Shown here: positions 5,364-21,380 of the stretch, one piece after another
How positions within the stretch are numbered: the stretch's first letter is position 1
How the letters are laid out: each line of letters begins with the position of its first letter
Assembly: GCF_943373825.1 (NCBI RefSeq)
Contig: NZ_CALSBP010000001.1
Location: forward strand, 1,302,001 to 1,366,000
Direction: 5' to 3'
DNA from: Aquimarina spinulae
Lineage (GTDB): Bacteria; Bacteroidota; Bacteroidia; Flavobacteriales; Flavobacteriaceae
DNA: 64,000 nt
The notes under the pieces: generated by a model
Told to the model about the DNA's origin: nothing
The model's database searches: none
The model's input: only the letters and a program-made list of their open reading frames with translations
Translations under genes and position numbers: made by a program

Positions 5364-6044
5364 TTATCCTTTTTTTAACTCTTCGATAGTTTTGGCCATT
5401 ATTACTCCTGGTAATTTGATAGGAGCAGCAACCTGAGCTAAGAAAGTACCTTTTACCTCACCAGTTTTGTATGTTGTAAAACCAATACGGTATAATCCAG
5501 CAGTTAATGCTTTAAGAGGATCACCAACTTCACTTTTATATCTTAATAACGAATTGTAACTACTTCCGCTAGGTTGTTTAGGCATTTCACTACTGTCATC
5601 ATTACGTTCTAGAACAGTCCAGTTAGCACTTTTTACAGCTTCTCCGGTAATTTTATCTTTACTTATAATATCAGAACGTTCTAACGTAATATAAGTATCA
5701 AAGAAATCACTAGAACTTGCATTTTCTGTATATGCAGCAGATGCAGTAGCTCCTTTTATTTTGTTTTTACCTACCGGAGACATCATTCTTATACCAAGCT
5801 CTGGAGCCACAGCAGGAATCCAAACATAGATATAATAAAATTTCTTACCATCTTTTACCTCGTCTTCATTACCTGGTGCAGCATATCCAAGATAAGTTAC
5901 AACATCTGTATAAGGCACCTTTATAGTTTTTGGGCCTATCTTTTTTTCGGTTAAACCACCAAATTTCTTTAGTTTTTGTGCTTGAGCATCAATAGAAGTT
6001 CCTAAAGCAAATATGCTTAGTAAAATTAAGATTCTTGTTTTCAT
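5364..6044 (-). CDS. LipL32-like secreted protein, copy 1
   Basis: A 226-aa protein with a signal peptide (MKTRILILLSIFALG...DAQAQ). I place the start at 6044, where the signal peptide begins, rather than at the in-frame ATG at 6083. The mature part resembles LipL32, the major surface protein of Leptospira. Shared features include YYIYVWIPAVAPELGIRMMSP, FDTYITLERSD, YNSLLRYK and GLYRIGFTTYKTGEVKGTF, in the same order and at similar spacing. Unlike LipL32 there is no lipobox Cys, so it should be periplasmic or released. It ends in a helical tail (TIEELKKG). A close paralogue lies at 19161-19844. Function is unknown; LipL32 itself binds calcium and matrix proteins. Confidence 0.8.
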   Translation of the reverse strand: MKTRILILLSIFALGTSIDAQAQKLKKFGGLTEKKIGPKTIKVPYTDVVTYLGYAAPGNEDEVKDGKKFYYIYVWIPAVAPELGIRMMSPVGKNKIKGATASAAYTENASSSDFFDTYITLERSDIISKDKITGEAVKSANWTVLERNDDSSEMPKQPSGSSYNSLLRYKSEVGDPLKALTAGLYRIGFTTYKTGEVKGTFLAQVAAPIKLPGVIMAKTIEELKKG

Positions 6045-6092
6045 AAATAATTGATTTGATTTTAGTGATAAATACACACACACTTCTTATCA

Positions 6093-6178
6093 CTATAGGT
6101 TAGTGTTATGATAATCTATGATTATCAATTTAATTACAAATATGAGAGTTTATAATTAGAATAGAATAACGTATTTGC
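6093..6178 (-). promoter_or_regulatory. Upstream region shared with the giant TPR/propeller gene
   Basis: The stretch upstream of LipL32-like copy 1 aligns with 13973-14055, upstream of the 1599-aa gene. Both begin CTATAG[G/A]TTAGTG and later share AAATATGAGA followed by a TTTAT-ATTAGA block, in the same orientation relative to the gene. Read on the minus strand it contains CATATTTG, a near match to the TAnnTTTG -7 box. It may be a common promoter or a relic of duplication. Confidence 0.45.
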
Positions 6179-6333
6179 GTTTAGTTATTCTATTTTAATA
6201 ATGGATTCTGTTTTTCAGTAGGTTATATGAAAAAATCTCTACTCATTCTTAATATGTAATATAGACTGATATCTTAAGTAATTATAAGAAGATGTTGGTA
6301 TAGGATCTTTTATCCAATTGTTCATATAAAGAA

Positions 6334-6413
6334 GGTTTAGATGAATTGGTAGTTTTATTAGAACTTGAGTATTTATATTTAGTGCAAATGTCGATTGGAT
6401 TATGATAAAACTT
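6334..6413 (-). pseudogene. Relic of the 5' part of the gene at 6968-8203
   Basis: GAAGGTTTAGATGAATTGGT at 6331-6350 matches 8057-8076 inside the 411-aa secreted-protein gene with one mismatch. The stretch from about 6380 to 6412, containing CAAATGTCGATTGGATTATG, matches the upstream region of that gene at about 8222-8252 with few changes. The order is kept but the sequence between is deleted. It reads as a decayed, internally deleted second copy whose edge is fused to the YkgJ relic. Confidence 0.55.
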
Positions 6414-6827
6414 AAAAAAAAACTACTTAAAAAACTGGATCATATCATGCAGGAGTTACATGAAGAGTTTAGTAACACAGATTGTTTAGAATGCGTGAAT
6501 TGGTGTAAAATTATTGATTCATTATTTAGTGATAAAGATGTAGAGGGGGTTTTAAAGTTTTTAAAAATTAACCCCAGGCAATTTGAAGAACAATACCTAC
6601 GAACAGATAAGGATGAAGACTTGATATTGCAACAAACTCCGTGCACTTTTCTTGGGGCCGATAATTACTGTGCGATTTATGAGGTAAAACCAAAAGCATG
6701 TTGAGAGTACCCACATACAGATCATAAAAAATTTCGAGAGATATCTAATTTAACGCTAAAAAATGTAGCAATTTGCCCTACAGCATACAATATTGTAGAA
6801 AAAATGAAACCTAAAAGACCTTTATAG
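6402..6827 (+). pseudogene. Decayed duplicate of the YkgJ-like gene
   Basis: The frame from 6402 aligns with the YkgJ-like gene at 4776 from about residue 24 to the end, but it carries a TGA at 6702-6704 where the parent has CGA (KAC-R-EYP). Downstream of the stop the homology continues in frame to a TAG at 6825-6827. The first Cys cluster has also changed (CLECVNWCK instead of CLECANCCK), losing a metal ligand, and the N-terminal 20-odd codons are replaced by sequence from the relic at 6334-6413. The nonsense change, the lost ligand and the missing 5' end together mark it as a pseudogene. Confidence 0.85.
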
Positions 6828-6842
6828 ATAAGCCTATATACA

Positions 6843-6881
6843 ATTACTCCTATATGTAATTCATAAGCATATAGGAGTAAT
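6843..6881. terminator. Terminator-like hairpin after the YkgJ relic
   Basis: A perfect 14-bp inverted repeat: ATTACTCCTATATG (6843-6856) and CATATAGGAGTAAT (6868-6881). It sits between the relic and the converging gene at 6968, in the same place as the hairpin after the intact YkgJ-like gene. Confidence 0.65.
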
Positions 6882-6967
6882 CTTGAATATGGGTCTAAGC
6901 AAATAATTGTTTTCGTATAAGTTTTTTCTCTTTCTAACAAAAAAAGCTTAAGGATTTAGAGACCAAT

Positions 6968-8203: not shown

Positions 8204-8506
8204 CTTTTTATTTAGTGAGCTGTAAATGTTGATTTGATTATCATGAAACTTGAAGCTTTTTTGAATCACTGTGATTATTATAACAATAAGATCAAAAAGT
8301 ATACAATTATGATATTTGAAACATGCTTTTTCAAAACATTTACTTCATATTATATTTGATTCAATTTTAGTTAAATTTTTATATAATTATGAAGTCAAAT
8401 CCAGACTTTGTGACGAATGTCTTATAATTAGTGATGAATTGTTTTACTTAGGAAATAGGCACCTTTATTTAGCTACTCAATACTGTGAAAATACAATAGA
8501 GTTCTT
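8204..8506. other. Intergenic stretch without a supported gene
   Basis: About 300 AT-rich bases between two minus-strand genes. A plus-strand frame crosses it (8316-8573), but it runs into the coding part of the minus-strand gene and looks like chance. No hairpin or repeat was identified apart from the part copied in the relic at 6334-6413. Confidence 0.5.
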
Positions 8507-9154
8507 TTATTTATTATCTATTTCTATAAATTTTTCTTTCTCTAAACTGGGAGTTTCTGGTGCGGGATCATAATGTCCACTCAGAGTAGAAAGAATTTCT
8601 CCTGTTTCTTTATGTATTTCTTCAATATACTCAATTCCTCCCTGATCGGGATTTCTGGATGTGGTGTATACCAAATAATGGTTTTCTTTTTCATAAATAG
8701 AGATAACAACAGATGATTTATTGCCTTTGTTAAACACGTTATTATTAGCTCCATTACGGTTTAGGATAAAATTGATAACATTCATATCTTCTGTTGTGGG
8801 GCGATAAAAAGTAGTGTTTCCTCCTTTATTATTGTCACTGCTTATAGAGATCGATTTAGAAGGAAATTCTACAATTATGTCTGTATTGTAACTACTGTTT
8901 TTTGGAAAATAGATTACATTGTATCCAAAATGAACCTTGATCCTTTTGTTACTGGCCAGTATTTGTATGAAGTGAAAATCATCTTCAGTTACCTCTGGCT
9001 TAGAAATAGAATGTAACTCTTTTAGAGCCATATGAATAATGTGATTTTTTCCTAGCTTCTTTAACTCTAATATTTCTTCTTGTGGAGATGTGGATTGCGC
9101 ACTCATAAATAAGACAGGTAGTGAAATAAACAGCAAACGAATTGGTACCTTCAT
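8507..9154 (-). CDS. Secreted protein of unknown function
   Basis: A 215-aa protein with a signal peptide (MKVPIRLLFISLPVLFMSAQ) and no lipobox. The mature part has alternating beta-like segments (KRIKVHFGYNVIYFPKN, NKSSVVISIYEKENHYLVYTTSRN) and ends in an acidic helical tail. No family is recognised. It starts 8 bases after the stop of the 1599-aa gene and is probably co-transcribed with it, perhaps as an exported partner of that cytoplasmic protein. Confidence 0.7.
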   Translation of the reverse strand: MKVPIRLLFISLPVLFMSAQSTSPQEEILELKKLGKNHIIHMALKELHSISKPEVTEDDFHFIQILASNKRIKVHFGYNVIYFPKNSSYNTDIIVEFPSKSISISSDNNKGGNTTFYRPTTEDMNVINFILNRNGANNNVFNKGNKSSVVISIYEKENHYLVYTTSRNPDQGGIEYIEEIHKETGEILSTLSGHYDPAPETPSLEKEKFIEIDNK

Positions 9155-9162
9155 GGACTTTC

Positions 9163-12100
9163 TTAATTAATGATTCCTTTATTGGTAGAGATCTCATCCA
9201 TCATTTCTGAAGAGTGTCCATTTTGTTTAGCTTTTTGTACGTAGTTTAAGGCTTCTTTTGGGTTTTTAAGTTTATAATATATCTCTGCGATATTGGCGAG
9301 ATACATGGGTTCATTGGTTGCGGTTAGTGCAGCATTTTTAAAATAAGGTAATGCTTCTTCATAGCGTTTCTCTACATCTAATGCACAACCAGTGAGGTTG
9401 TATAACCGTGCGAGTGTTGCTATATCATGAGAAGCCTTTTTGATATACTCCTCTTGTTTTTCAAGATATGCAGGAATTCCTTTTTTTAACCACAGCAAGC
9501 GCGCTTTTAGAAAATAAACCTGACCAAATTCTGGATCTATTTTTAGAATAGCATCCCCTTTTTGTTCTGCCAATTCGAGATCTTTATTTTTTAAATCATT
9601 CCAGGCAGCCTGGAGTAATGCAAACTTACTTTTTTCCTTGATTTTGTATAAGTCAATTTCTTCAGAGAATTTGTCTTTGTTTTGAGTGATAGCCTCAACA
9701 ATGATTTCTGCTATGCTTGCCAGTTCTGGCCTTTTCTGGATATGCTTATAGGTGTAATGAATGAAGTTAAAAGCTAATAGTCTGTCGTGATCATAATTTT
9801 CATCTTTGGCTATATTATTAGATAGTTTTTGTATGAATATATTTTTAAAATCTTCACCATAGATGTGTTCTCCTTGTTCAAATAATACATCTATAGTAGT
9901 ATACCATGATTTTTTATAAGGCTCAGGTTTTATAGTGTTATCCCAAATAGGTTTTTCTTCTTCAGATTCAAAACTTTGTAGTATGTGTTTAACCTGTTGT
10001 TTTCGATATAACTGTAATAAGAATGTTTCTTCGTTTTCATAATCATCATCTCCAAAAAGGTCGTCGTCATATTGTTCATTATACTGTTTCGCAGAATTTG
10101 CTCTAGAAATCAATTCCTCTGGAAATTTTTCGTGACCTAACCTGATAAGCATGTCACAAACAGGTACAATCATATTTTTTATACGATGATTTTGCCTTTC
10201 ACCGATATCGGATTCAAATTGCTCAAAAATTTCTAATAACTCCTTTTCAAATGATCTTATAACTGCCAAAGGAAGTTTGGAAATATTAATTGTATTTCTG
10301 TGTGCATCACCGATGTAATTATAATAATCTAAAACATCATACGTATCAGTTAACAATTTTTTGATATAATTGTAGATAGATTTATGAGAATACATTTTAT
10401 AACGATAGGCCAACCTTGCTCTTAGAGATTCATCATTTAGCGTATCTAGAATATCTAATAAGAATGCTTTAATTTCGGGATCTTCAGAAAATTCGTCCCA
10501 TAGACCATATCCGTTATTTACAAGAATCGATACATATCCTTCTTTTATATTGGGAACATTTGGTGTTTTTTCTAAAACAGGTTTTGGGATACTATATTTT
10601 GCGCCATTAAACATAATATTTCTAATAATTTTTCGGTCAGGATGAGAAGCAATGATTTGAAGTACCTGGTTTTTTAATTTTCTAAGATCTCTCGAATCAT
10701 CGTTTTCTTGTTTCGGTCCAAAAACAGGCCCCTGAATATATGATGGTTTGATTTTTGTCGAACTGCTCGAAATAGCTTTTCCATTTTTTAAAGAACCAGA
10801 AGTATTTCTAATTTCATCTTTAGGGTTTTTCAGATTAAGTATCTGTATCAACTCTTTAAAAACACCTTCTTCGGTAATCATTCTGCTTTCTAATTGCTTG
10901 ATCAAATTTTCATTACCACTAAGTATAATGCCTTCGGCAGTTTCAGGATCTTGCGACGAACTGATTTCGCGATAAGGATTCCAGTTATGATCCGGGAATT
11001 CTAAATATCTGGATTCATTATTTATAAGTATCGAAACATGTTTTGAAGTCATTGTATTAAAACTATCATTCGAAATGATTTTATCTATGACACAATTAAG
11101 ATCGTAATTCATTTTCATGAGCTGAGGATCAAAATTCATATCCAAAGTATCAGAGAAATATGGATAAATGTTAAAGTTAGAGTAGACCATAGGGAGTCCA
11201 GATTCCTCATGAAAACTAGATACTATTGCAGGACTTGAGCATCCCTGAAAAGAAAGTGATATCACTCCATAATCAGGTTTGTGCTCCAGAACTACTTTTC
11301 CAATACTAAAACCGGGATGATGTTCTACCAAATGTTCAAAACACTCAATAGCCATCTTTTCTAATATATCCTGAATGTCAAATTCTTGTTTCTGTTGAGC
11401 AAGGTTTTTATCTTTTTCTAAAATACAGATATCATATTTTGTAAAACCTATAACAGTATCTTCATCATACATTGTTGCTATGTTATAGGTTAATCGTTCA
11501 CTATATAAATTCTCCTTGTTTAGACTTTCTAACCAATTAATGAGTGAAATCTTACCATTATCTTCTTTAGAAAGCGTGGTAAATAAAAATTCATCGCCTG
11601 TACTACATAAAGGGATATTAGGTTTTTCTGAAAAATAATAAATAGGAGCAAGGTCGTCCCAGTTATGACAGATAAATTTTGGGTCAGCAGGATTACTTAT
11701 ATCTATTACAGATCGGGTAACCATATAATGCTCAAAAAACGCTACATGCATATCTCCAGGTGTCTTATCTTCTATAATACTGGATAAATAAGTAGGATTG
11801 CTTTTGTCCTTAATATCTAGTAGTAGAACCAAACCAGCACCAGCACCCACAACCAGAAGATTATGGTGAATATGAAGACTATACCCACTTTCTATAAACA
11901 GGTCTGAAGAAATCGGGTTCGCATTGGGATTAGAAAGATCAAAGATTTCAAGGTATTCATTATTACAAACATACAAATGACCATCTAAAATATTGAGATT
12001 ACCATATTTTGGCACTTTTTTAGTATTTCTAATACTACCTTCTATAGGAATAATAGTATTTCCCTGGATTTGGTATCTTACAATTCCTTTATCATAATCT

Positions 12101-13962
12101 GATATATATACTACTTCGTTATGGTAAGAATAGTGGTATCTTTTTTCCTTATCTAAGGCAATTACAGTATGTTTTATGATCTCATAAGTATCTGTAATTT
12201 CTCCTATAAAAAGTTCTTTATCACCATTTACTGCGATGAATTGATTTTTACTAATAGGCACAACCCAACTTAAATCAACATCTTCGATTTTATGAGATAG
12301 ATAGTAACAATCTTCATAAGGTACTTTTTCTATTTCTTGTTTAGCGGTTTCCGGAATAACAAGAGAAGATACTTTTACTTTGAATTTAAAATCTTCTTTT
12401 TCTTTCTCTTTTGCTAAGTAATCATCATAAGTTTGAAGCATATAAGAAGAATTGGCAAACTCTTTTTTAAATAATGTACGGGCATTATCAGAGAAGAAAA
12501 TTCTCTGAAAACAGTATAAAGCATTTTCTTTTTCTCCAAGAATTGTATATAATTTAGATAATGCTATTGCTGCCCTGCCTATCGAAAAAGACTCTTTATT
12601 TTCTGACATAAAAGAAATGAGTTCATCTTTTAGCCTATTAAGTTCATCTTTCTGATCTTGATATAATCTAATATCAAATAACCACTTTGGTAATAATGCA
12701 TCTTTTTTGGCTCTTTTACTTTCAATTGAAGCATAGCACTCATCAAATTCCTCTTTACGGTTTAGGAAATATAAATTTTCTAATAAATGTACTTTATAAT
12801 GATCTGATAATTGCTTTATAGATTTAAGGATTGCTGTTGATTCCTCATACCGTCCTTCAGAAAATAATCTGGCGGTTAAGAATTTTTGAAGATCAGAATA
12901 GTTTTTATTAGTATCTGGTAAAAGTTCTAGTGTTTTTCTGAAAGCTTCTTCACCATAGTTATAAAGCTTTTCTTCTGCTTTGTATGAAATATCGAGGTTA
13001 TGTTCCTGTATAGTATTTAACCATTTTGTAAAATTGGATTCGTTATGGATTGGATCTGGAACCTGCAAAGGATCTATTATTTTATCCGGAAACTGTACCA
13101 TAAATTCATCAAAAGCACTAAAAAAAGCTTCTTCTGGTAAATCACCTTCTTCTTCTTCGATATGTCCTCCATCTAGTTTCCAATCTTCAAATTCATCGGT
13201 TAATCTAAAAATAGCTTTTTCTCTAAGTTTGGATTGTATAAAGCCATACTCGATATTTTTGATGTCATAGGTGTATATATTACTTTCTTCTTCAGAACCT
13301 TCGTATATATTGCTTTTGGGATAAAATAAATAAAAACCAGTGTCATAAAACTTTAAATATGGATAGGTTAATTTTGACTGAGGCAACGCAAGCATCACAT
13401 TATAAAATGGACCAGAACCGTTAGGATGATTAAAAGCCAGTATTCTTACATTATCGTCCTGTTTAAAAGTTAGTTTGTGCGTAACAAAACCCACAACATG
13501 TTTGAAATCTTTTTGAGTATAAGAACTGGCTACATTTTTTATAGCATTTTCAATTTGTAAAATCAATTCTTCGCGTAAGCATACTAAATAACTTTTATAT
13601 AATTGGTCAGATATATGGTCAAAAGTAAGTGCAGGCTTTATTTTTGCATATTTTTTTTTCTGCTCAGTTGCCTGATCAATAAAAGAAGTATCTAATTCTT
13701 CTCTCTTTTCAAAAGCCGTATCTGCAATATCTAACCATTCGGATATTGAAATTGTACCAATATCCGATGCATCATCATATTCAGATCCATAATAATACTC
13801 GTCCCAGGCATTGTTATAGGTTACTTTAAGTACATCAAAAGTCTTATTGGGCGAAATGATAATCATTCGTAGCTCTTCTGGATTAATTTTTCCTGAAGTA
13901 ACAGCCTGATCTATGATTTCCTTAAGCTGTTTTTGGATCGATGTAGTGATGTTTAATTGCAT
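9163..13962 (-). CDS. Giant protein with beta-propeller-like (LVIVD-like) and TPR regions
   Basis: A 1599-aa protein without a signal peptide or membrane segment, so probably cytoplasmic. Residues about 340-520 look like helical TPR-type repeats. About 560-850 are repeats such as GHLYVCNNEYLEIFDLSNPN and HNLLVVGAGAGLVLLLDIKD, which resemble LVIVD or propeller blades. A helical region with acidic runs follows, and about 1490-1595 contain clear TPRs (YEEALPYFKNAALTATNEPM, NPKEALNYVQKAKQNG). The parts suggest a scaffold. Its upstream region is related to that of LipL32-like copy 1. The whole protein is not recognised. Confidence 0.75.
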   Translation of the reverse strand: MQLNITTSIQKQLKEIIDQAVTSGKINPEELRMIIISPNKTFDVLKVTYNNAWDEYYYGSEYDDASDIGTISISEWLDIADTAFEKREELDTSFIDQATEQKKKYAKIKPALTFDHISDQLYKSYLVCLREELILQIENAIKNVASSYTQKDFKHVVGFVTHKLTFKQDDNVRILAFNHPNGSGPFYNVMLALPQSKLTYPYLKFYDTGFYLFYPKSNIYEGSEEESNIYTYDIKNIEYGFIQSKLREKAIFRLTDEFEDWKLDGGHIEEEEGDLPEEAFFSAFDEFMVQFPDKIIDPLQVPDPIHNESNFTKWLNTIQEHNLDISYKAEEKLYNYGEEAFRKTLELLPDTNKNYSDLQKFLTARLFSEGRYEESTAILKSIKQLSDHYKVHLLENLYFLNRKEEFDECYASIESKRAKKDALLPKWLFDIRLYQDQKDELNRLKDELISFMSENKESFSIGRAAIALSKLYTILGEKENALYCFQRIFFSDNARTLFKKEFANSSYMLQTYDDYLAKEKEKEDFKFKVKVSSLVIPETAKQEIEKVPYEDCYYLSHKIEDVDLSWVVPISKNQFIAVNGDKELFIGEITDTYEIIKHTVIALDKEKRYHYSYHNEVVYISDYDKGIVRYQIQGNTIIPIEGSIRNTKKVPKYGNLNILDGHLYVCNNEYLEIFDLSNPNANPISSDLFIESGYSLHIHHNLLVVGAGAGLVLLLDIKDKSNPTYLSSIIEDKTPGDMHVAFFEHYMVTRSVIDISNPADPKFICHNWDDLAPIYYFSEKPNIPLCSTGDEFLFTTLSKEDNGKISLINWLESLNKENLYSERLTYNIATMYDEDTVIGFTKYDICILEKDKNLAQQKQEFDIQDILEKMAIECFEHLVEHHPGFSIGKVVLEHKPDYGVISLSFQGCSSPAIVSSFHEESGLPMVYSNFNIYPYFSDTLDMNFDPQLMKMNYDLNCVIDKIISNDSFNTMTSKHVSILINNESRYLEFPDHNWNPYREISSSQDPETAEGIILSGNENLIKQLESRMITEEGVFKELIQILNLKNPKDEIRNTSGSLKNGKAISSSSTKIKPSYIQGPVFGPKQENDDSRDLRKLKNQVLQIIASHPDRKIIRNIMFNGAKYSIPKPVLEKTPNVPNIKEGYVSILVNNGYGLWDEFSEDPEIKAFLLDILDTLNDESLRARLAYRYKMYSHKSIYNYIKKLLTDTYDVLDYYNYIGDAHRNTINISKLPLAVIRSFEKELLEIFEQFESDIGERQNHRIKNMIVPVCDMLIRLGHEKFPEELISRANSAKQYNEQYDDDLFGDDDYENEETFLLQLYRKQQVKHILQSFESEEEKPIWDNTIKPEPYKKSWYTTIDVLFEQGEHIYGEDFKNIFIQKLSNNIAKDENYDHDRLLAFNFIHYTYKHIQKRPELASIAEIIVEAITQNKDKFSEEIDLYKIKEKSKFALLQAAWNDLKNKDLELAEQKGDAILKIDPEFGQVYFLKARLLWLKKGIPAYLEKQEEYIKKASHDIATLARLYNLTGCALDVEKRYEEALPYFKNAALTATNEPMYLANIAEIYYKLKNPKEALNYVQKAKQNGHSSEMMDEISTNKGIIN

Positions 13963-14205
13963 AGCGTTTTTTCTATAGATTAGTGCTGTAATAATTTATA
14001 ATCTAGTTGCAAAATATGAGAATTTATTATTAGAGCTAAATATCTTATTTACATTTTAATTATATTGCTATTGATACGTATTAAATTGATTATAAAACTG
14101 TTCTCAATTTTAACAAGACAGTTTGATTTTGTTGGTTATAAAACAGGGTATACTTGTTCTTTATTTCTATCTATTTTGTTGCAATTCGTATGATTGCTAA
14201 TCTAT
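13963..14205. other. Upstream region of the giant gene
   Basis: No gene is seen. Bases 13973-14055 align with 6093-6178 upstream of LipL32-like copy 1 (shared CTATAG, TTAGTG and AAATATGAGA blocks) and probably hold the promoter of the 9163-13962 gene. The remainder is AT-rich and unremarkable. Confidence 0.45.
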
Positions 14206-14307
14206 TCATTCTCTTTTTTTAAAAGTTTCTTCACAATAACCACAAACCGAGCTTACCTTTTTGTAACACCAGAAGAGATATAAAAACCTGTACTCAACTA
14301 TTTCTAT
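14206..14307 (-). pseudogene. Relic of a zinc-ribbon membrane protein gene
   Basis: Reading the minus strand from 14307 to the stop at 14206-14208 gives a peptide that contains KKVSSVCGYCEETFKKRE. This matches KKVYSVCGHCKGAFEEREF of the intact zinc-ribbon gene at 20534-20878, preceded by a matching FW-containing segment with a short deletion. The first CPYC half, the start codon and the membrane segment are gone. It lies next to the paralogue of the small membrane gene, as the intact gene does at 20.5-21.4 kb, so a two-gene unit was duplicated and one half decayed. Confidence 0.75.
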
Positions 14308-14314
14308 GTTCTTA

Positions 14315-14474: not shown

Positions 14475-14477
14475 TTA

Positions 14478-14915
14478 CTACATAAAGAATAAGAAAGAGG
14501 CTACGATCTGCCAACAGCCAATAATGATTCCTATAACTCCTAACTTACGTTGTTTTGATGCTGACTTTCCTCTTAATTGATTTGCTTTTTCTTTTGTAGC
14601 TCCATTTTTGAATACGAAAAACTTGTTAATTGAGCGGAAAACTAACATGAAACCTAATACAGCTTCCATAATATTCCCAGCTAATAAGGTGATCCACCAG
14701 ATAGGATAGGTTGTAAGCCATCCCAGGTTTAAAACTGCTGAAATGATTCCCCATAAACCCCAGAAACAGAACATAAGTCCGATCATAAATCTGATCAAGC
14801 TTGGCAACGGTTCGATTTTTTCTAAAAATTCTTTTACCTCTGGTTTTTTTGATAGCAATAATGATGGTGCTGCTACTATAATACTTAATAAAATCAATGT
14901 GATTCCCAAGGTCAT
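14478..14915 (-). CDS. Small multi-spanning membrane protein, copy A
   Basis: A 145-aa protein with about four membrane segments ([74 protein letters not shown]) and a basic loop before the last ([17 protein letters not shown]). It is a clear paralogue of the protein at 20961-21380. The shared start [12 protein letters not shown] sets the start at 14915, although the frame is open further upstream. The two genes also share sequence upstream of their starts. Function is unknown; it lies next to the SPFH gene cluster and may be a membrane partner. Confidence 0.75.
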   Translation of the reverse strand: MTLGITLILLSIIVAAPSLLLSKKPEVKEFLEKIEPLPSLIRFMIGLMFCFWGLWGIISAVLNLGWLTTYPIWWITLLAGNIMEAVLGFMLVFRSINKFFVFKNGATKEKANQLRGKSASKQRKLGVIGIIIGCWQIVASFLFFM

Positions 14916-14974
14916 AATTTTTAGTTTTAAAGTGTTAGTACTTATTTTTTTTTGATCCCTGTTTTGAATCCTAA

Positions 14975-14992: not shown

Positions 14993-15048
14993 GATAGGTA
15001 TAGGTTTTGAAGTTTTTTTTAAACTATCTTTTATAAATTATCGAGATA

Positions 15049-15777
15049 CTAGATCATTTTTTCTAACTCAGGAAGCTTGGTGTCAATTTCGATTTGTCTT
15101 TCTCTGCATTCTTCAGATTTATTACTTTCGGGATGATTAGCAAGAAAACCGTTAAGTGCCATTTGCATATCTTTAAGGTATCTTATTTTTAATGAAATTT
15201 TTTCGGTTTCCTGGTATTTTTGCCAGGCTTCTTCGACATATTTATATTCTAATTCCTGTCGTTCTAATTGTTTAATTTCTTTCCATCCGGGTAATAAATC
15301 TATTAATTTCTGAGAATTAGGAAAGGCTTTAATGGTATCCTCTAGATCAGGAACAGCAGCATATGCAGGCCTTAAGGTAGTATCAGAAAAGAAAGTGATG
15401 GCTTCTTTTTCACTATCTCCAAGAAAAACAGCTAAGATTTCATTCCACCCTATCGAAATAAACAAGAAACTACCATCGGGTATTGTGGTATCGGTAGTAA
15501 GTTTATACATGTTTTCTTTTTCTAAAGGCTCTATGCCAAAATTTACATCTTCATTAAATCCTCCCAATGCTAGTTTTCTTGCTTGAGCCACCAGAGATCC
15601 ACTATCAAAATTTTGAAGATATACAATAATCTCTATGTGATCATTTTCTCTTAGTACCGACGGAACCTTGTTAAGGTGTCTAAACTCAGGGAAACTGGTG
15701 TTATTGATGGTTGCAAATGATAGATAACTATCTTTACTTTTAATATGTATTCCGAATTGTTTGATGTTATTTTCCAT
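15049..15777 (-). CDS. Protein of unknown function in the SPFH cluster
   Basis: A 242-aa protein with no signal peptide. I place the start at 15777 (MENNIKQFGIHI); the frame is open to 15936, but that part overlaps the end of the upstream gene. The N-terminal two thirds is beta-rich (HIEIIVYLQNFDSG, GSFLFISIGWNE), and the last third is helical and charged (ERQELEYKYVEEAWQKYQET). I considered TerD because of the beta-rich core, but its calcium-binding acidic loops are absent. It follows the DUF6620-like gene by 112 bases and is probably in the same transcription unit. Confidence 0.65.
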   Translation of the reverse strand: MENNIKQFGIHIKSKDSYLSFATINNTSFPEFRHLNKVPSVLRENDHIEIIVYLQNFDSGSLVAQARKLALGGFNEDVNFGIEPLEKENMYKLTTDTTIPDGSFLFISIGWNEILAVFLGDSEKEAITFFSDTTLRPAYAAVPDLEDTIKAFPNSQKLIDLLPGWKEIKQLERQELEYKYVEEAWQKYQETEKISLKIRYLKDMQMALNGFLANHPESNKSEECRERQIEIDTKLPELEKMI

Positions 15778-15889
15778 GATTCTTTTTTGTTTTTTAAAAC
15801 AAGATGACCTGATTTCATCAAATTTGCAATGTAGTGTAATTGGGTTGCAGATGAATCCCAGGCCATCTATACATAAAATGTTATTGGGA

Positions 15890-16960
15890 TTAAAAATCGA
15901 TATCGTCTCCTGCCTTTGCCGAAGCAAATTCTGCATTATATTTTTCCATTAATTCTCCCATTTTTAATGCCATACGAGTATCTGTAGCCATTTTTGGAGT
16001 CCAATGCATACCTACAGAACTCCAATCGGTAACTGTAAGTCCGTATTCTTGTAAGATTGAAGCAGCATCTTTTCCTTGAGCCGCTCCCATATTTTGATGA
16101 CACATAACTTTAACATAAAGCTCGAAATCTTCATAAATATCATTGTTACCCGCAGAAGAGTCAGTTTCAGATTCTTGATTGCTTTCTGCATTGGCAAATT
16201 TGCCAATGTTCGAATTCATAAAAGCATCACCATATACCTTAGAAATTGCAAAAGTTGTGTCTTGAGACATTCTTGCGGTCCATTCTGCAGATACTTCATC
16301 CCAGATTGGTTTTTCTGTTCCTACAACTTTAAGTACTTCTTCTAGATCCATACCTCCTGCTATTTTTGCATTAGCAGCGGCCCAGGTTTCCATATCAATG
16401 CCATTAATAGGATCTAATAATCCACCGGCTTCTGCTGCTTCTATATGGGCATCCATCTGTGCATCTAGTTTAGCTTTTTGCTCTTTTAGAAAATTATCGG
16501 CATCGTCGTATGCTTTTTCTTCAGCAGAGTTTAGTAAAGCTATCCCCCATAAAAAATGATTTTCATCAGCGAATCCATATTCACGAATCTGATCATTAAA
16601 TTCTGAAAGGTCACTATCTTTTAGGTTTTTAATATCATTAAGGATATCGGTAGCATCCTCGTGAGAAAGTTCACGAACCTGCTCTGGCATTTCGAGTTTA
16701 TTAACATATCCATATCTTCTGATACCAGACTTAAATTGGTTATTAAGATCCACCCAATGTGGTTCATTTAGGTTAGGTTTAAATGGCCACACATCATAAT
16801 CTTCACCTTCTTCAAGGTCCTGAAAAGAAAGATCTGCACATGGCCATGTCATGTAGTCATAGCTGTGCCAATCCATGCGATCAAGAATCGCTAGATAATC
16901 TCTGTATTCGTCTTTTTGTTTTCCTGAAACGTCTTGATAAAATTCATTAACTGTACTCAT
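15890..16960 (-). CDS. DUF6620-like protein with two internal repeats
   Basis: A 356-aa soluble acidic protein. The N-terminal third carries WPCADLSFQDL and DYDVWPFKPNLNEPHW. Two related units follow, one near residues 199-250 (WAAANAKIAGG...VLKVVGTEKPIWDEVSAEWTARM) and one near 285-345 (YVKVMCHQNMG...ILQEYGLTVTDWSSVGMHWTPKM). Each pairs a helical part with a W-x-x-[MR]-[SA]-x-D-T end. I link it from memory to DUF6620, found in Bacteroidota near SPFH genes; that name is not certain. It starts 32 bases after the SPFH gene, so the two are almost certainly co-transcribed. Confidence 0.65.
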   Translation of the reverse strand: MSTVNEFYQDVSGKQKDEYRDYLAILDRMDWHSYDYMTWPCADLSFQDLEEGEDYDVWPFKPNLNEPHWVDLNNQFKSGIRRYGYVNKLEMPEQVRELSHEDATDILNDIKNLKDSDLSEFNDQIREYGFADENHFLWGIALLNSAEEKAYDDADNFLKEQKAKLDAQMDAHIEAAEAGGLLDPINGIDMETWAAANAKIAGGMDLEEVLKVVGTEKPIWDEVSAEWTARMSQDTTFAISKVYGDAFMNSNIGKFANAESNQESETDSSAGNNDIYEDFELYVKVMCHQNMGAAQGKDAASILQEYGLTVTDWSSVGMHWTPKMATDTRMALKMGELMEKYNAEFASAKAGDDIDF

Positions 16961-16992
16961 ATGGTATAATTTTTAAAGATTGATTTTTGTTT

Positions 16993-18036
16993 TTAGAATT
17001 GAGATAATATTTCCTGTTTCTTTTGTTTGTATTCCTGTTCGTCGATTAAGCCAGCATCAAACATTTTCTTTAGTTTTTCTAGTTTTTGCATCGGATCGTC
17101 GTTTTGAGGTTGAGGTTGAGATTGAGGTTGAGGAGGAGTATTTTGTTGAGGTGTAGACTGCTGTCCTTGATTATTCATCATATTCCCCAGCATTTGACCC
17201 ATTCCCAGGCCAGCCCCCATTTGCATACCGATATTACCACCGCCTTCATTTTTTGCCATATTTTTTAAGGCCTCGAGTTGTTGGTAATCCTGGTAGCTTA
17301 CTCCAAGTTCTTTCATTGCCTGTGCTTCGGCACTCATATCTGCAATTCGACTAATTCTTGTTTTGGTTTCTTCATCAAAACTGGTTCCTTCTATCCTAAA
17401 ATCAAGGAGTTCAAAACCTAGTTCATCGAAGATTTGTGCGCTCGAATTCTGAGAGAATGATGCAATTTCATTACGATGTTTATCAATTTCTACATAACTA
17501 AATGAAGCGTTAGCCAGGAAATCACTGATAGGCTGAGTAATTCTGGATAGAATAACTTTTTGTATTGCCTTTACAGGATAGTAGTCGTCACCTGCAATAA
17601 CGTTGGTAAAAAAATCAACTGGTTTAGTGATTTTGAAAGAAAAATTACCAAAAGCACCTAATCCTACAGGAAAATTATAAACAGGATCTTTATAGGTGAT
17701 AGGAGAGGGGGTTCCCCAACGAATATTTTGCATTTCTGCTTTTCTATAGAAAAAGATACCTACTTTATGAGCAGATTCAAAGGTATACATGATATTCTTG
17801 ATGGTGGTCCAAAAAGGAATATTTCCTGTTTTAAGATCGTAAAGCCCTTCTTCTTCAAAGACGCCTTCTACTTTGCCCTCGTATACAAAAAGACATCCTT
17901 GTCCGGGCCCTACGATCAATTTTGAAGCATTTTTAATCTCGTCCCCGTTTTCTGTCCATTTTTCAAAAAGAGTTTCGGGTTTTGGGTTTTGCCATTCGAT
18001 TACCGAACGGAGTTGACTTCTAAATGAATTTGACAT
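16993..18036 (-). CDS. SPFH-domain protein with C-terminal SHOCT motif (YdjI-like)
   Basis: A 347-aa protein. The first 240 residues fit the SPFH/'virion core' type found in Bacillus YdjI (SKLIVGPGQGCLFVYEGKVEG, FFYRKAEMQNIRWGTP, DELGFELLDFRIEGTS). A glycine/methionine-rich linker (GMQMGAGLGMGQMLGNMM) and a Pro-Gln run (about 300-320) follow, and it ends in a SHOCT motif (KLKKMFDAGLIDEQEYKQKK). SPFH proteins form membrane-associated oligomers. In Bacillus, YdjI works with a zinc-ribbon membrane protein (YdjG) and the PspA homologue in membrane stress. Here two zinc-ribbon genes lie directly upstream in the same operon, which supports a comparable role by inference. Confidence 0.85.
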   Translation of the reverse strand: MSNSFRSQLRSVIEWQNPKPETLFEKWTENGDEIKNASKLIVGPGQGCLFVYEGKVEGVFEEEGLYDLKTGNIPFWTTIKNIMYTFESAHKVGIFFYRKAEMQNIRWGTPSPITYKDPVYNFPVGLGAFGNFSFKITKPVDFFTNVIAGDDYYPVKAIQKVILSRITQPISDFLANASFSYVEIDKHRNEIASFSQNSSAQIFDELGFELLDFRIEGTSFDEETKTRISRIADMSAEAQAMKELGVSYQDYQQLEALKNMAKNEGGGNIGMQMGAGLGMGQMLGNMMNNQGQQSTPQQNTPPQPQSQPQPQNDDPMQKLEKLKKMFDAGLIDEQEYKQKKQEILSQF

Positions 18037-18056
18037 ATTTTTTTCTTTTAGGATTA

Positions 18057-18821
18057 CTAATAGTTAGTTAAGAATGCAGTTTTAGCCTTGAGATCTTTTT
18101 CATACCGATCTTTATAATCTGGTATGATTTCGATTCTCTTCTTTAAGTAGGTCTCTACATATTTTTGATATAGAGGCGTTAATTCCTCTTTACCATACGT
18201 TTCAGAATCTTGTATGTAATTTTGAAACTTAAACTCTTCATATTGCAGATAGTGCTCTAATGCAGCTTCTTCTCCAAGAGCATGGATAGCAAAATGTTCG
18301 ATATTTCTGGCTTTAGTTCCTGGTTCGAATGTATTTACCGTTTGGCAATATTCACAAGTACTGTAATACGATCTAAAAAAATTATCTTTTACTGGTAGTT
18401 TAGCTTGACATTGGGTACAACAAAAATCTTTGGATAAAGTATCTTTTACTTCTTTTAGTAATTTTTTTGCAGCATCTGCAAAAATTTTCACTTCGTATGA
18501 TTTTAGTTTTTGTTCAAGTTTAAATTTTGTTAGATACCCTTTATCTCTTTCTTGTATAAATTTTTTAGAACCAAATTCTGCTCCTGAATCTTCAAAGGCT
18601 TCTTCGACTTTATCTTCCCATGTGCTATCTATTTTCCAGATAAGTTCATTAGCTTGAGAATAAATTCCTTGCCAGGCATTATGAAATGTAGTAGTTTCAA
18701 AATCAGTTGCTTTAAATAATAGAGGTAATGCAGCTTCTGTTTTTTCTAATATCTCCTCGAATCGATCTTCGATTTTCTTAAGGAATCCATCCCATCTATT
18801 TTGTGTTTCATTAAATGACAT
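18057..18821 (-). CDS. Zinc-ribbon protein of the SPFH cluster
   Basis: A 254-aa protein, helical at the N-terminus, with a zinc ribbon near residues 133-162: CTQCQAKLP, then after a spacer CEYCQTVN. The C-terminal part is helical, with HALGEEAALEHYLQYEEF. No membrane segment is visible. It lies 20 bases upstream of the SPFH gene and 22 bases downstream of another zinc-ribbon gene, a tight operon. Its job is unknown; zinc ribbons in such operons usually mediate protein contacts. Confidence 0.7.
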   Translation of the reverse strand: MSFNETQNRWDGFLKKIEDRFEEILEKTEAALPLLFKATDFETTTFHNAWQGIYSQANELIWKIDSTWEDKVEEAFEDSGAEFGSKKFIQERDKGYLTKFKLEQKLKSYEVKIFADAAKKLLKEVKDTLSKDFCCTQCQAKLPVKDNFFRSYYSTCEYCQTVNTFEPGTKARNIEHFAIHALGEEAALEHYLQYEEFKFQNYIQDSETYGKEELTPLYQKYVETYLKKRIEIIPDYKDRYEKDLKAKTAFLTNY

Positions 18822-18843
18822 ACTTTTAAAGGATTATTATATT

Positions 18844-19050
18844 TTAATAGAATTGGTCTCCACAGAAATCACAGTATTTAAGGTCTGTGTCTTCGGGTCT
18901 TGCCGCTCCGCAGCTTTTACATCGTTTGGTTTCGAGACCTGCATTTGTTTCTTCATATTTTTTTGTAGAAGAGAGTGCATTGGCCAGGATATCATCGAGA
19001 AGATTTTTTTTCTCTTCTTTAGAATTTTGTTTATCGTCGTTTTCTTGCAT
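18844..19050 (-). CDS. Small zinc-ribbon protein
   Basis: A 68-aa protein with a charged N-terminal half (MQENDDKQNSKEEKKNLLDD) and a C-terminal ribbon CKSCGAARPEDTDLKYCDFCG, giving four Cys ligands (CxxC-x12-CxxC). It is the first gene after the terminator-like hairpin at 19091 and the head of the SPFH cluster. Its size and layout suit an adaptor or metal-binding accessory subunit. Confidence 0.7.
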   Translation of the reverse strand: MQENDDKQNSKEEKKNLLDDILANALSSTKKYEETNAGLETKRCKSCGAARPEDTDLKYCDFCGDQFY

Positions 19051-19090
19051 CTTAAAATTGGTGGTTTAGAGAGAAGACATATAGAAAAGA

Positions 19091-19133
19091 GGTTATTCCC
19101 ATATTTTTTGAAGCAAAAAACATAGGAATAACC
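19091..19133 (-). terminator. Terminator-like hairpin after LipL32-like copy 2
   Basis: GGTTATTCC (19091-19099) pairs with GGAATAACC (19125-19133), and the inner TTTTTTG/CAAAAAA extends the stem. It resembles the hairpin beside LipL32-like copy 1 (5288-5326), and both are followed by an ACCGT-GGTG stretch, so gene and terminator were copied together. Confidence 0.65.
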
Positions 19134-19160
19134 GTAGGTGCTACTATTCCAATTTACGTT

Positions 19161-19844
19161 TTATAGCCCTTTTTTTAAGTCTTCGATTGTTTTAGCCATT
19201 ACTACTCCTGGTAATTTGATAGGAGCTGCAACCTCTGCTAGGAAAGTACCTTTTACTTCACCAGTTTTGTATGTGGTAAAACCGATACGATACAATCCAA
19301 CAGTTAATGCTTTAAGAGGATCACTTGCTTCACTTTTATATCTTAATAGAGAGTTATAACCACTTCCACTAGGCTGCTTAGGCATTTCACTGCTATCATC
19401 ATTACGATCTAAAGTAACCCAGTTAGCACTTTTTACAGTACCCTCACTAATATTATCTTTACTCGTTATATCAGAACGTTCTAAGGTAATATACGTGTCA
19501 AAATAATCAGTTGATTTTGCATTATCTGTATATGCTGCTGATTTTGTTGCTTTTTTGATTTTAGTTTTCCCTACAGGAGACATCATTCTTACCCCAATTT
19601 CTGGAGCAACAGCAGGAATCCATACATAAATGTAATAGAATTTCTTACCGTCTTTTACTTCATCTTCATTACCAGGTGCAGCATACCCCATATAAGACAC
19701 AACATCTGTATAAGGCACTTTTATGGTTTTGGGACCTATCTTTTTTTCGATAGAACTACCAAACTTTTTTAATTTTTGAGCTTGGACATTTAGATTGCTT
19801 CCAAAAGCAAGGATAACAACTAAGATTAAAATTTTTGATTTCAT
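19161..19844 (-). CDS. LipL32-like secreted protein, copy 2
   Basis: A 227-aa paralogue of the protein at 5364-6044, nearly colinear with it. It has a signal peptide (MKSKILILVVILAFGSNLNVQAQ), YYIYVWIPAVAPEIGVRMMSP, FDTYITLERSD, YNSLLRYK and GLYRIGFTTYKTGEVKGTF. These are the conserved blocks of Leptospira LipL32, but without the lipidation Cys. Differences between the copies cluster around residues 105-165 (KSTDYFDT, ISEGTVKSANWVTLDRN). It starts 44 bases after the SIMPL-like gene and is probably the last gene of a four-gene unit from 21380. Confidence 0.8.
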   Translation of the reverse strand: MKSKILILVVILAFGSNLNVQAQKLKKFGSSIEKKIGPKTIKVPYTDVVSYMGYAAPGNEDEVKDGKKFYYIYVWIPAVAPEIGVRMMSPVGKTKIKKATKSAAYTDNAKSTDYFDTYITLERSDITSKDNISEGTVKSANWVTLDRNDDSSEMPKQPSGSGYNSLLRYKSEASDPLKALTVGLYRIGFTTYKTGEVKGTFLAEVAAPIKLPGVVMAKTIEDLKKGL

Positions 19845-19888
19845 TTTTTTGTTTTATGTGTTAATTAATTTATTGATATACTCTTTTA

Positions 19889-20503
19889 TTACTCTAGTGT
19901 AAAAGTTACTTTTACAAGATGTTTTTGAATTTCTTCTGGTTTATGCATATTTATGTATTGCGTTCTCGAATCAGAATTTTCAACCTTTATAATATGCCCC
20001 AATTTTTTATTGAGATGATCGGCAGTTTTTTTTGCTTTCACTTTTGCATCTTCAATTGCAGTGAGTGTTAAAGCGGCCCATTCTGTATTGTTTTTTTCTT
20101 TGGCTACTGCTTCGACCTGCATAATTGTTAAACCATTCATCCTCTGTTTGGTGATTTTGATCACCTCTTCTTCTGAAGCTGTTGTATAATTGTAATATGA
20201 AATATCATTTACTTCTGAGTAAGATGCATACAATTGATAGAGAACATTCTTTTGAAACTTACTAAAATCAACTCCTATAGTCTTTAACTTATCACTGTAT
20301 GATTGTTTAACCTGTGATAGACTTTTGGGTTCAAGTTGCTGATATCCATTTGCAACGAGTTGTTTTAGCGAGATGGTAAGAACATAGTTGTTAACTTCTA
20401 TTTGCTTGTTCGCTTCTCCTACAATAGTTAGGGTCGCATTATTTTCTTGTGAAATAACCGATGTAACCGTTAAGAGGAGTACTATAAAAACAAGTTTTTT
20501 CAT
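19889..20503 (-). CDS. SIMPL-domain (DUF541-like) periplasmic protein
   Basis: A 204-aa protein with a signal peptide (MKKLVFIVLLLTVTSVISQ). The N-terminal TLTIVGEANKQIEVNNYVLTISLKQ and the C-terminal AIEDAKVKAKKTADHLNKKLGHIIKV match the pattern of SIMPL/DUF541 proteins (Bp26, YggE). These are beta-alpha periplasmic proteins linked to stress in other bacteria, with no settled molecular function. It sits between a zinc-ribbon membrane protein and LipL32-like copy 2. Confidence 0.7.
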   Translation of the reverse strand: MKKLVFIVLLLTVTSVISQENNATLTIVGEANKQIEVNNYVLTISLKQLVANGYQQLEPKSLSQVKQSYSDKLKTIGVDFSKFQKNVLYQLYASYSEVNDISYYNYTTASEEEVIKITKQRMNGLTIMQVEAVAKEKNNTEWAALTLTAIEDAKVKAKKTADHLNKKLGHIIKVENSDSRTQYINMHKPEEIQKHLVKVTFTLE

Positions 20504-20533
20504 TTTAAAAAATTATATGATTCTACGTGATTT

Positions 20534-20878
20534 CTATTTTGTTAAATATGGCAGTACAGTAAGTAATGCAATAAGCATAACCAGAATTGTAAGCCCTGTA
20601 AAGTGATACCATGGAGTTTTTATTTGATTGTTTTTAAAATCGTTAAAACTCTGTGTCAATTGCTGATTCTGAAATTCTCTTTCTTCAAAAGCTCCTTTAC
20701 AATGACCGCAAACCGAGTATACTTTTTTTCCGATAGGAAAGAACGGTATCCAAAACACATGAAAATATTTTCTATATCCTTGTATCCACATATTGTTTTC
20801 TGTATTACAATAAGGGCAATTTCCTCCTTCTAATTTTTTAGGATGAATGGTTGAAGAACCTGTTCCAAATATGATCAT
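20534..20878 (-). CDS. Zinc-ribbon protein with C-terminal membrane anchor
   Basis: A 114-aa protein. CPYCNTEN (near residue 20) and CGHCKGAF (near 55) form a split zinc ribbon around IQGYRKYFHVFWIPFFPIGKKVYSV, and one membrane segment follows at the C-terminus (FTGLTILVMLIALLTVLPYL). This arrangement is common in Bacteroidota 'zinc-ribbon domain' proteins of unknown function. A decayed copy lies at 14206-14307. It is downstream of the small membrane protein gene by 82 bases. Confidence 0.75.
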   Translation of the reverse strand: MIIFGTGSSTIHPKKLEGGNCPYCNTENNMWIQGYRKYFHVFWIPFFPIGKKVYSVCGHCKGAFEEREFQNQQLTQSFNDFKNNQIKTPWYHFTGLTILVMLIALLTVLPYLTK

Positions 20879-20960
20879 GATGTTTCGGATTTTTTCTGCT
20901 TAATTGCAGTTGTTACTGTTGTAAGTACTATAAAAAACAAGTTTTATAGAGGTGTTAATA

Positions 20961-21380
20961 TTAGTAAGGCAAAAATGATAATACGATCATTGCAGCACCT
21001 ACAATTAAACCAACGATTCCTAGTTTACCTTGTTTTGGTGCTAATTTTGCTCTTAGTTGGTTGGCTTTCTCTTTGGCCGCTTCATTTTTAGATAGTACAA
21101 GCTTATTAATCATTCCAAAACCTAACATGAATCCTAATACTGCCGAAACAATATTTCCTGCTAAAAAAGTTACCCATCGAATTGGAAATGATGCAAGCCA
21201 GCCTATACCAAGGATTGAAGAAATGATTCCCCATATTCCCCAGAAACAAAATACAAGTCCAATCCAACCTTGATACGGTTCGATTTTTTCTAAAAGTTCT
21301 TTCGCGTTTGGTTTTTTAGATAATAATAGTGATGGTACTGCTATAATACTTAATAGAATTAATGTGATTCCCCAGATCAT
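20961..21380 (-). CDS. Small multi-spanning membrane protein, copy B
   Basis: A 139-aa paralogue of the protein at 14478-14915, with the same four membrane segments and the same basic loop ([21 protein letters not shown]). The start at 21380 is the one shared with copy A; the frame stays open to 21641, but the extra part is AT-rich, has no paralogue support and overlaps the promoter region of the adhesin. It heads a minus-strand unit with the zinc-ribbon, SIMPL-like and LipL32-like genes. Confidence 0.75.

What the first reader, a model, noticed from the sequence alone, without database searches (positions are those of the whole stretch)
5364..21380. Minus-strand block joining LipL32-like, SPFH/SHOCT, zinc-ribbon and DUF6620-like proteins
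Seen: about 16 kb in one orientation (except the YkgJ relic). It contains an SPFH/SHOCT protein, three intact zinc-ribbon genes, two paralogous four-segment membrane proteins, two LipL32-like secreted proteins, a SIMPL-like protein, a DUF6620-like protein and a 1599-aa TPR/propeller protein. Known: Bacillus YdjGHI pairs an SPFH protein with a zinc-ribbon membrane protein and PspA in membrane stress. Inference: this may be an envelope-stress or membrane-domain system of Bacteroidota with cytoplasmic, membrane and exported parts. I do not know a description of this combination.
Basis: partly seen in the sequence, partly recalled or inferred. Interest (0 to 1): 0.8.

Follow-up and report, generated by a model that had tools for sequence, protein, structure and literature searches.

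The report
SPFH–zinc-ribbon cassette with swappable partner domain
The 16-kb stretch is most likely not one machine: it is a surface-protein locus of a marine bacterium that also holds a small, undescribed four-gene cassette (a membrane-scaffold-type SPFH protein, two zinc-ribbon proteins and a DUF6620 protein), and the front part of the DUF6620 protein has been exchanged between two versions in closely related bacteria.

Summary
The listed genes are there, but the 16 kb is composite. Four genes recur together: Zn68, E254, SPFH/SHOCT and D6620 (15890-19050), with 20-32 bp gaps, behind a terminator-like hairpin. D6620 and E254 occur in the same 24 of 66 genus genomes and the same 7 of 296 phylum genomes, adjacent each time. 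LipL32-YkgJ-methyltransferase loci without the cassette exist (13 of 18 sites fetched), and outside the genus the cassette is not linked to LipL32. The whole-block envelope-stress system is rejected; a narrower SPFH/zinc-ribbon module is supported, without PspA in 10 of 12 cassette genomes. Unexpected: the first ~156 codons of D6620 are exchanged between two divergent types (28-32% amino-acid identity) while its C part is 94-96% and neighbouring genes 80-100% identical in three close pairs, the FG-GAP border gene apart; at least five changes on the tree. I read D6620 as the client-selecting subunit of a cytoplasmic SPFH scaffold. The exchange is shown; scaffold, membrane link and client are inferred. 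The held library has no paper naming DUF6620. A recognition or conflict role is open, weakly supported.

The parts
18844..19050 (-). Zn68: 68-aa zinc-ribbon protein, first gene of the cassette
   Evidence: next to E254 in 17 of 17 DUF6620 loci
18057..18821 (-). E254: helical protein with one zinc ribbon, no transmembrane segment by hydropathy
   Evidence: (four Cys invariant in 29 rows), AF2 pLDDT 93.6, hydropathy
16993..18036 (-). SPFH: Band_7_1 (PF13421) domain, Gly/Met/Gln-rich linker, C-terminal SHOCT; no transmembrane segment by hydropathy
15890..16960 (-). D6620: exchangeable N-terminal part (codons 1 to about 156, type N1 here), long helix, two C-terminal repeats (DUF6620)
16490..16960 (-). 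exchangeable N-part of the D6620 gene (3' border approximate)
   Evidence: 100-column blocks fall to 28-58% identity here in three N1/N2 pairs, against 81-100% over E254, SPFH and the rest of D6620
19091..19133 (-). terminator-like hairpin (20 pairs counted) between LipL32b and the cassette
   Evidence: hairpins at the same place in relatives
19161..19844 (-). LipL32b: LipL32-like exported protein, no Cys in the leader (host locus, not cassette)
5364..6083 (-). LipL32a: paralogue of LipL32b (host locus)
5284..5330 (-). terminator-like hairpin after LipL32a
19889..20503 (-). exported SIMPL-like protein (below Pfam cut-off), host locus
20534..20878 (-). Zn114: Zn_ribbon_15 protein with one C-terminal hydrophobic segment, host locus
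20961..21380 (-). TMa: 139-aa protein with several hydrophobic segments, host locus (but beside the cassette in G019)
14478..14915 (-). TMb: paralogue of TMa, in the variable part
15049..15777 (-). H295: no Pfam family; variable part
9163..13962 (-). 1599-aa TPR protein; variable part
8507..9154 (-). p215, exported; variable part, relatives also in cassette-free loci
   Evidence: L132, L135, L144
6968..8269 (-). p433, exported; variable part
6402..6704 (+). YkgJ relic
4776..5270 (+). intact YkgJ (CxxCxxCC family), border of the host locus

Best explanation
The finding joins two things. (1) A surface-protein locus of Aquimarina: TMa-Zn114-(SIMPL)-LipL32-...-YkgJ-methyltransferase. (2) A four-gene cassette, Zn68-E254-SPFH-D6620, lying between LipL32 and YkgJ and followed by a stretch of variable gene content. 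The cassette most likely makes one cytoplasmic assembly. The SPFH/SHOCT protein forms the oligomeric scaffold, E254 and Zn68 act as zinc-ribbon adaptors, and D6620 docks through its conserved C-terminal repeats and presents an interchangeable N-terminal domain that selects the client or target. Shown: composite build, cassette co-occurrence, a hairpin at the border, repeated exchange of the D6620 N-part. Inferred: one transcript, physical complex, location at the membrane, N-domain as recognition part.
For: Co-occurrence: D6620 and E254 in the same 24 of 66 genus genomes. In a phylum sample of 296, the 7 genomes with PF20325 are the 7 with a strong E254 match; five of the seven (the own genome, G127, G348, G413, G422) had rows in the E254 profile, so only G172 and G387 are free evidence. 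In a sample of 395, 10 of 10 D6620 genomes have E254 next to it, with SPFH in the cluster in 7 of 10. 17 of 17 loci carry all four genes; 16 of these 17 have the contig length of a genome of the genus sample, so they overlap with it. 15 contig lengths are shared by the D6620 and E254 hit lists. Cassette gaps of 22, 20 and 32 bp, similar in 22 relatives (three D6620 starts overlap SPFH there because my ORF caller takes the first start codon). Hairpin before Zn68 with 13 or more pairs in 20 of 22 loci, mean 17.3 against 9.6 in shuffles. Cassette-free sites. N-part exchange: in three pairs 28-58% nucleotide identity against 81-100% around; amino acids 28-32% against 94-96% for the C part; at least 5 changes on a 25-row tree, 6 on the tree of the C part.
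Against: No contact between any of the proteins is shown. The D6620 model has pTM 0.54 and E254 gives only helical-bundle matches, so docking is a guess. G413 and G514 have D6620-Zn-E254 without an SPFH match within the 20 kb read, so SPFH may be optional. No cassette protein here has a hydrophobic segment; N-termini of some distant D6620 proteins look amphipathic, but their moments are mostly modest (0.23-0.33, two of 0.54-0.60). Two of 22 loci lack the hairpin in my scan, and the region as a whole has no excess of terminator-like sites (10 found, 8.4 expected). N-types follow the tree more than shuffled labels do (5 changes against a shuffled mean of 8.1), so exchange is repeated but not frequent. 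In G019 a TMa gene lies beside the cassette. SHOCT self-association was tested by others and not supported (PMC3581485, abstract and passages).
Confidence: 0.5

Rival explanations
1. The cassette is a PspA-free version of the Bacillus PspA-YdjGHI membrane-stress system: SPFH is recruited to stressed membrane and changes its fluidity.
For: SPFH is in the Pfam family PF13421, which I recall as that of YdjI; YdjI is described as likely soluble, needs YdjG/H for membrane recruitment, and its deletion lowers membrane fluidity (PMC8581546, abstract and one section); band-7 with zinc ribbons in the ydj operon (PMC11237479, passages).
Against: No PspA in 10 of 12 cassette genomes, the own one included; in G442 it lies about 256 kb from the cassette, in G422 on another contig. 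No TPM match among the 16 window proteins scanned. Does not explain the exchange of the D6620 N-part.
Confidence: 0.22
2. The cassette is a conflict or recognition system (toxin immunity, phage sensing or kin recognition); the D6620 N-domain is the specificity part, kept as discrete exchangeable alleles.
For: Repeated exchange of one part of one gene with sharp borders; at least 5 changes on the tree; a third N-type in proteins such as that of Chitinophaga; one D6620 with a SUKH domain in front (P0024); SUFU, DUF2314-Ank and DUF2625 genes beside one cassette (L051), an ankyrin gene downstream of the Flavivirga cassette and a DUF1963-LRR gene near that of G512; SUKH, SuFu, DUF2314 and Ank are listed as immunity families (PMC3482391, passages); variable genes downstream.
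Against: SUFU lies beside the cassette in 1 of 12 genomes; no PADLOC match in 8 proteins; SUKH in 1 of 43 scanned; within a type the N-part is about as conserved as E254, not hypervariable. Neighbour families were not compared with random loci, and no systematic toxin search was made; none was recognised among the proteins scanned.
Confidence: 0.18
3. All genes of the 16 kb form one envelope-stress or membrane-domain system.
For: One orientation; flanking order kept in 22 other genus genomes; every cassette genome of the genus also has LipL32 (24 of 24, against 18 of 42 without cassette; related genomes, so not independent); TMa beside the cassette in G019.
Against: LipL32-YkgJ-methyltransferase without cassette at 13 of 18 fetched sites; G442 has both parts, unlinked; outside the genus 8 cassette genomes: no LipL32 in 6, unlinked in 2; hairpin between the parts; TPR1599, H295, TMb, p215 and p433 come and go.
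Confidence: 0.04
4. The N1/N2 exchange is neutral: two old, equivalent versions of one domain spread by ordinary homologous recombination at the conserved ends. (This concerns the exchange only and can hold beside the other readings.)
For: N1 and N2 are homologous (profile comparison probability 98.0, E 1.8e-13), so they could do the same job; within-type identity roughly follows that of E254; types follow the tree more than shuffled labels.
Against: Other genes of the same pairs of loci show no such replacement, the repetitive FG-GAP border gene apart; at least five changes in 25 loci.
Confidence: 0.2

Closest known systems
PspA-YdjGHI of Bacillus subtilis (PMC8581546 abstract and one section; PMC11237479 passages)
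   Same: A soluble SPFH protein encoded with zinc-ribbon protein(s) in a short gene cluster; family PF13421 here
   Different: No PspA in 10 of 12 cassette genomes, no TPM protein (YdjH), no membrane-anchored double zinc ribbon (YdjG); SHOCT where the Bacillus SPFH protein has a C-terminal zinc ribbon; DUF6620 partner with exchangeable N-part
Pfam DUF6620 (PF20325)
   Same: C-terminal half over the family cut-off; 43 of 43 aligned relatives match
   Different: Described only as a family of unknown function; 0 papers in the held library name it. N-part exchange, C-terminal repeats and the tie to E254 and SPFH are from this work
LipL32 / PtlL32 surface proteins (PMC4080168, abstract and outline)
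   Same: Pfam LipL32 domain over full length
   Different: No Cys in the leader of either protein; LipL32a is below the NCBIfam equivalog cut-off (120 of 300 bits); host locus, not cassette
Polymorphic-toxin immunity loci (PMC3482391, passages)
   Same: One D6620 fused to SUKH; one cassette beside SUFU and DUF2314-Ank genes
   Different: Not general: SUFU beside the cassette in 1 of 12 genomes; no toxin partner recognised

Membership tests
PSP / YdjGHI-type system | SPFH protein of the PF13421 family | tested here: met
   129.6 bits, cut-off 24; that YdjI is in this family is recalled
PSP / YdjGHI-type system | PspA in the genome and operon | tested here: not met
   PF04012 absent from G000; present in 2 of 12 cassette genomes, not adjacent in either
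PSP / YdjGHI-type system | Membrane-anchored zinc-ribbon protein YdjG (two zinc ribbons, NTF2-like domain, TM) | tested here: not met
   E254 has one ribbon and no hydrophobic segment; Zn114 has a ribbon and one hydrophobic segment but belongs to the host locus
PSP / YdjGHI-type system | TPM-domain membrane protein YdjH | tested here: not met
   No TPM match among the 16 window proteins scanned; Zn68 was not scanned
PSP / YdjGHI-type system | Induction by membrane stress; effect on membrane | not testable with these tools
   needs experiment
DUF6620 (PF20325) | Profile match over curated cut-off | tested here: met
   46.7 bits, cut-off 27, residues 180-356 only
LipL32 (Pfam PF12103) | Profile match over curated cut-off | tested here: met
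   272 and 270.3 bits, cut-off 25
LipL32 (leptospiral lipoprotein, NCBIfam equivalog) | Equivalog cut-off and lipobox cysteine | tested here: not met
   120 of 300 bits for LipL32a (LipL32b not scanned); no Cys in the leader of either protein
SIMPL (PF04402) | Profile match over curated cut-off | tested here: not met
   20.0 of 25.2 bits
Polymorphic-toxin immunity locus | Immunity-family genes regularly beside the cassette | tested here: inconclusive
   SUFU near in 1 of 12; other immunity families not surveyed
Known anti-phage defence system | Match to a PADLOC model | tested here: not met
   0 of 8 proteins scanned, at E 0.01; Zn68, TMa, TMb, SIMPL, LipL32 and p433 not scanned
E254 as member of a known fold family | Clear structural match | tested here: inconclusive

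The most novel reading that the evidence does not exclude
The cassette is a new SPFH-based recognition system: D6620 is a modular receptor whose constant C-terminal repeats plug into an SPFH/zinc-ribbon platform while its N-terminal domain, kept as a few ancient discrete alleles that are swapped by recombination across species and genera, decides which foreign or self molecule is recognised.
Probability: 0.15. Interest if true: 0.78.

Novelty: new variant of a known kind. Interest (0 to 1): 0.5.

Why it matters
SPFH proteins are widespread, yet what bacterial ones scaffold is mostly open. Here a small, self-contained SPFH gene cluster comes with a partner that nature has already domain-swapped in closely related strains. 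That makes the question testable: compare N1 and N2 proteins, in one strain background, for what they bind. It also shows that an apparent 16-kb system can be a cassette in a surface locus, visible only by reading sites without the cassette.

Tried and rejected
The whole 16-kb block as one system: rejected by cassette-free sites and unlinked copies. A PSP system: PspA, YdjG and YdjH features not met. A known defence system: no PADLOC match in 8 proteins. A polyimmunity locus: SUFU near in 1 of 12, not settled for other families. The caspase gene beside the cassette in L049 is not in the gene lists printed for L051 and around the cassette of L162; L050 and L052 were not printed.

Led nowhere: Foldseek and VIA-align for D6620 and E254 gave no match that stands out; the N-domain alone was not folded or searched. 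Sequence search of solved structures gave coiled-coil, helical or low-complexity-looking matches. Plasmid search with one D6620 protein gave none. A second, profile-based protein search added 4 proteins to a list of 70. The sigma-70 scan found no excess (73 sites, 81.6 in shuffles) and terminator-like sites no overall excess (10, 8.4 in shuffles); Bacteroidota promoters were not scanned. Papers: DUF6620 0; Aquimarina with LipL32 1, not read; SPFH, zinc ribbon, SHOCT and Bacteroidetes 1, passages seen; band 7, zinc ribbon, operon, Flavobacteri 6 listed, none read.

Limits: the E254 profile A2 holds rows from the own genome, G127, G348, G413 and G422, so their detection is by construction. Genus genomes are related, so 24 of 66 is not 24 independent events. 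Of the 18 genus genomes with LipL32 and no cassette, 15 were fetched (not G463, G474, G485); the other three of the 18 sites are G442, G496 (both have a cassette elsewhere) and G458 (TMa only). My hairpin scan allows loops of up to 12 bases, so it may miss L117 and L120; its shuffles keep base composition only. The number of N-type changes is a parsimony minimum on one tree with 10 of 22 inner branches well supported. The N-type of row L124 was set to N1 by hand. In one search two fragments (P0048, P0062) were wrongly put in the N1 set; one search repeats the comparison without them (7 of 67 proteins dropped in all), with the same outcome.
Full report
What is there. The window lies in a 6.24-Mb genome whose named relatives are Aquimarina. 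The genes recognised between 5364 and 21380 run on the minus strand; Pfam confirms two LipL32-like proteins, a Band_7_1/SHOCT protein, a DUF6620 protein, a Zn_ribbon_15 protein and a TPR protein. SIMPL and the propeller matches stay below cut-off. A 68-aa zinc-ribbon gene at 18844-19050 and a 254-aa protein with an internal zinc ribbon at 18057-18821 complete the three ribbons.

The block is composite. In the genus sample of 66 genomes, E254 occurs in 24, D6620 in the same 24, LipL32 in 42 and TMa in 40. In 23 of the 24 the cassette Zn68-E254-SPFH-D6620 sits between LipL32 and YkgJ-methyltransferase (the window plus 22 loci). Of 18 cassette-free sites fetched, 13 show LipL32-YkgJ-methyltransferase with no cassette, one of them with two LipL32 genes side by side (L130); the other five hold LipL32 or TMa alone. 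G442 carries a diverged cassette at one place and a cassette-free LipL32 site at another (L128, L142). Outside the genus, eight cassette genomes were searched for LipL32: six have none, and in G019 and Flavivirga it is on other contigs than the cassette (a ninth genome, G050, with the SPFH relative only, has none). In Flavivirga LipL32 lies beside a TMa gene, away from the cassette (L164); in G019 a TMa gene lies just upstream of the cassette (L046). So LipL32, Zn114 and SIMPL are host-locus neighbours rather than members; for TMa this is less clear.

The cassette is real. Phylum samples: PF20325 in 7 of 296, strong E254 matches in the same 7, plus one weak match (E 3.5e-4) in G332, where no cassette gene was found in the 20 kb read. 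Five of the seven had rows in the E254 profile. The D6620 profile matches 10 of 395; 10 of 10 have E254 adjacent, SPFH is in the cluster in 7, not found within the 20 kb read in G413 and G514, undecided in G422 where the contig ends. Gene order differs between groups (SPFH-Zn-E254-D6620 in L049, L051, L162; Zn-E254-D6620-TM-SPFH in L161; D6620-Zn-E254-SPFH-D6620 in L128), which argues for a functional tie rather than mere inheritance of one arrangement.

Transcription borders. Gaps inside the cassette are 22, 20 and 32 bases. The two longest terminator-like hairpins of the region follow the two LipL32 genes (19133-19091 and 5330-5284), although the region has no overall excess of such sites. 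The one before Zn68 recurs in relatives, by eye with changed bases that keep the stem; 20 of 22 loci have 13 or more pairs, mean 17.3 against 9.6 in shuffles.

The exchangeable part. Between loci of closely related genomes the D6620 gene changes abruptly from the start codon to about codon 156: in L112/L110, L108/L106 and L119/L113 the 100-column blocks there are 28-58% identical, those over E254, SPFH and the rest of D6620 95-100%, 82-100% and 81-97%. At the protein level, in L112/L110, L108/L107 and L119/L113, the N part is 28-32% and the C part 94-96% identical, SPFH 99-100%. Of the other shared genes, 13 of 14, 10 of 10 and 10 of 11 are 80-100% identical; the two exceptions are the repetitive FG-GAP border gene (42 and 35%). 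N1 and N2 are distant relatives (probability 98.0, E 1.8e-13 over 100 columns, which corrects), and the constant part ends in two similar repeats (E 1.2e-6). On the SPFH+E254 tree the type changes at least 5 times, on the C-part tree 6; shuffled labels give a mean of 8.1 with 5 or fewer in 1.65%, so types partly follow descent. Within a type, N identity roughly follows E254 identity, so these are discrete old versions, not a hypervariable region. N2 of L119 is closer to those of Flavivirga and G019 (85-86%) than to those of its congeners (60-79%), which fits exchange across genera or retained old alleles. A third N-type and a SUKH-fused form exist elsewhere.

How it may work. None of the four proteins has a transmembrane segment by hydropathy. 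Band-7 proteins oligomerise, and PF13421 is the commonest SHOCT partner (PMC3581485, passages). In Bacillus the likely soluble YdjI needs YdjG and YdjH to reach the membrane (PMC8581546, abstract and one section). I infer an SPFH platform with zinc-ribbon adaptors and D6620 as the part that selects the client. Models: D6620 pLDDT 81.8, pTM 0.54; E254 pLDDT 93.6, pTM 0.87; neither has a structural match that stands out.

What is known. It resembles the Bacillus operon in the SPFH protein and in having zinc ribbons; PspA, YdjG and YdjH features were not met. A LipL32 orthologue, PtlL32, helps Pseudoalteromonas tunicata to colonise algae (PMC4080168, abstract), which fits the host locus as a surface locus. 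No paper in the held library names DUF6620.

Verdict. Observation confirmed; interpretation partly supported; a new variant of the SPFH/zinc-ribbon kind with an unexpected domain exchange; mechanism open.

Noticed in passing
21644-27106 (+): FG-GAP-like repeat protein at the border of the locus is only 35-42% identical in two of three pairs of otherwise similar loci; a second polymorphic gene
   Followed up: partly
6402-6704 and about 14190-14290: Relics of YkgJ and of a Zn114-like gene: TM/Zn, LipL32 and YkgJ segments were duplicated around the site; short YkgJ pieces also in L067, L068, L131
   Followed up: partly
L049 7019-8428: Caspase-domain gene (PF00656) about 0.9 kb upstream of the cassette SPFH in G127
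   Followed up: no
L128 4214-8392: G442 cassette has two D6620-type proteins, one at each end, and lies away from the LipL32 site
   Followed up: partly
L111: Two tandem copies of H295 in the variable part of G461
   Followed up: no
G000 C2:2827596-2828480: A second, distant relative of the SPFH protein (32% identical) in the same genome; some match is found in 43 of 149 family genomes, mostly at about 30%
   Followed up: no
L164 8731-9870: LipL32 beside a TMa gene in Flavivirga, away from the cassette: this pair is older than the genus
   Followed up: no
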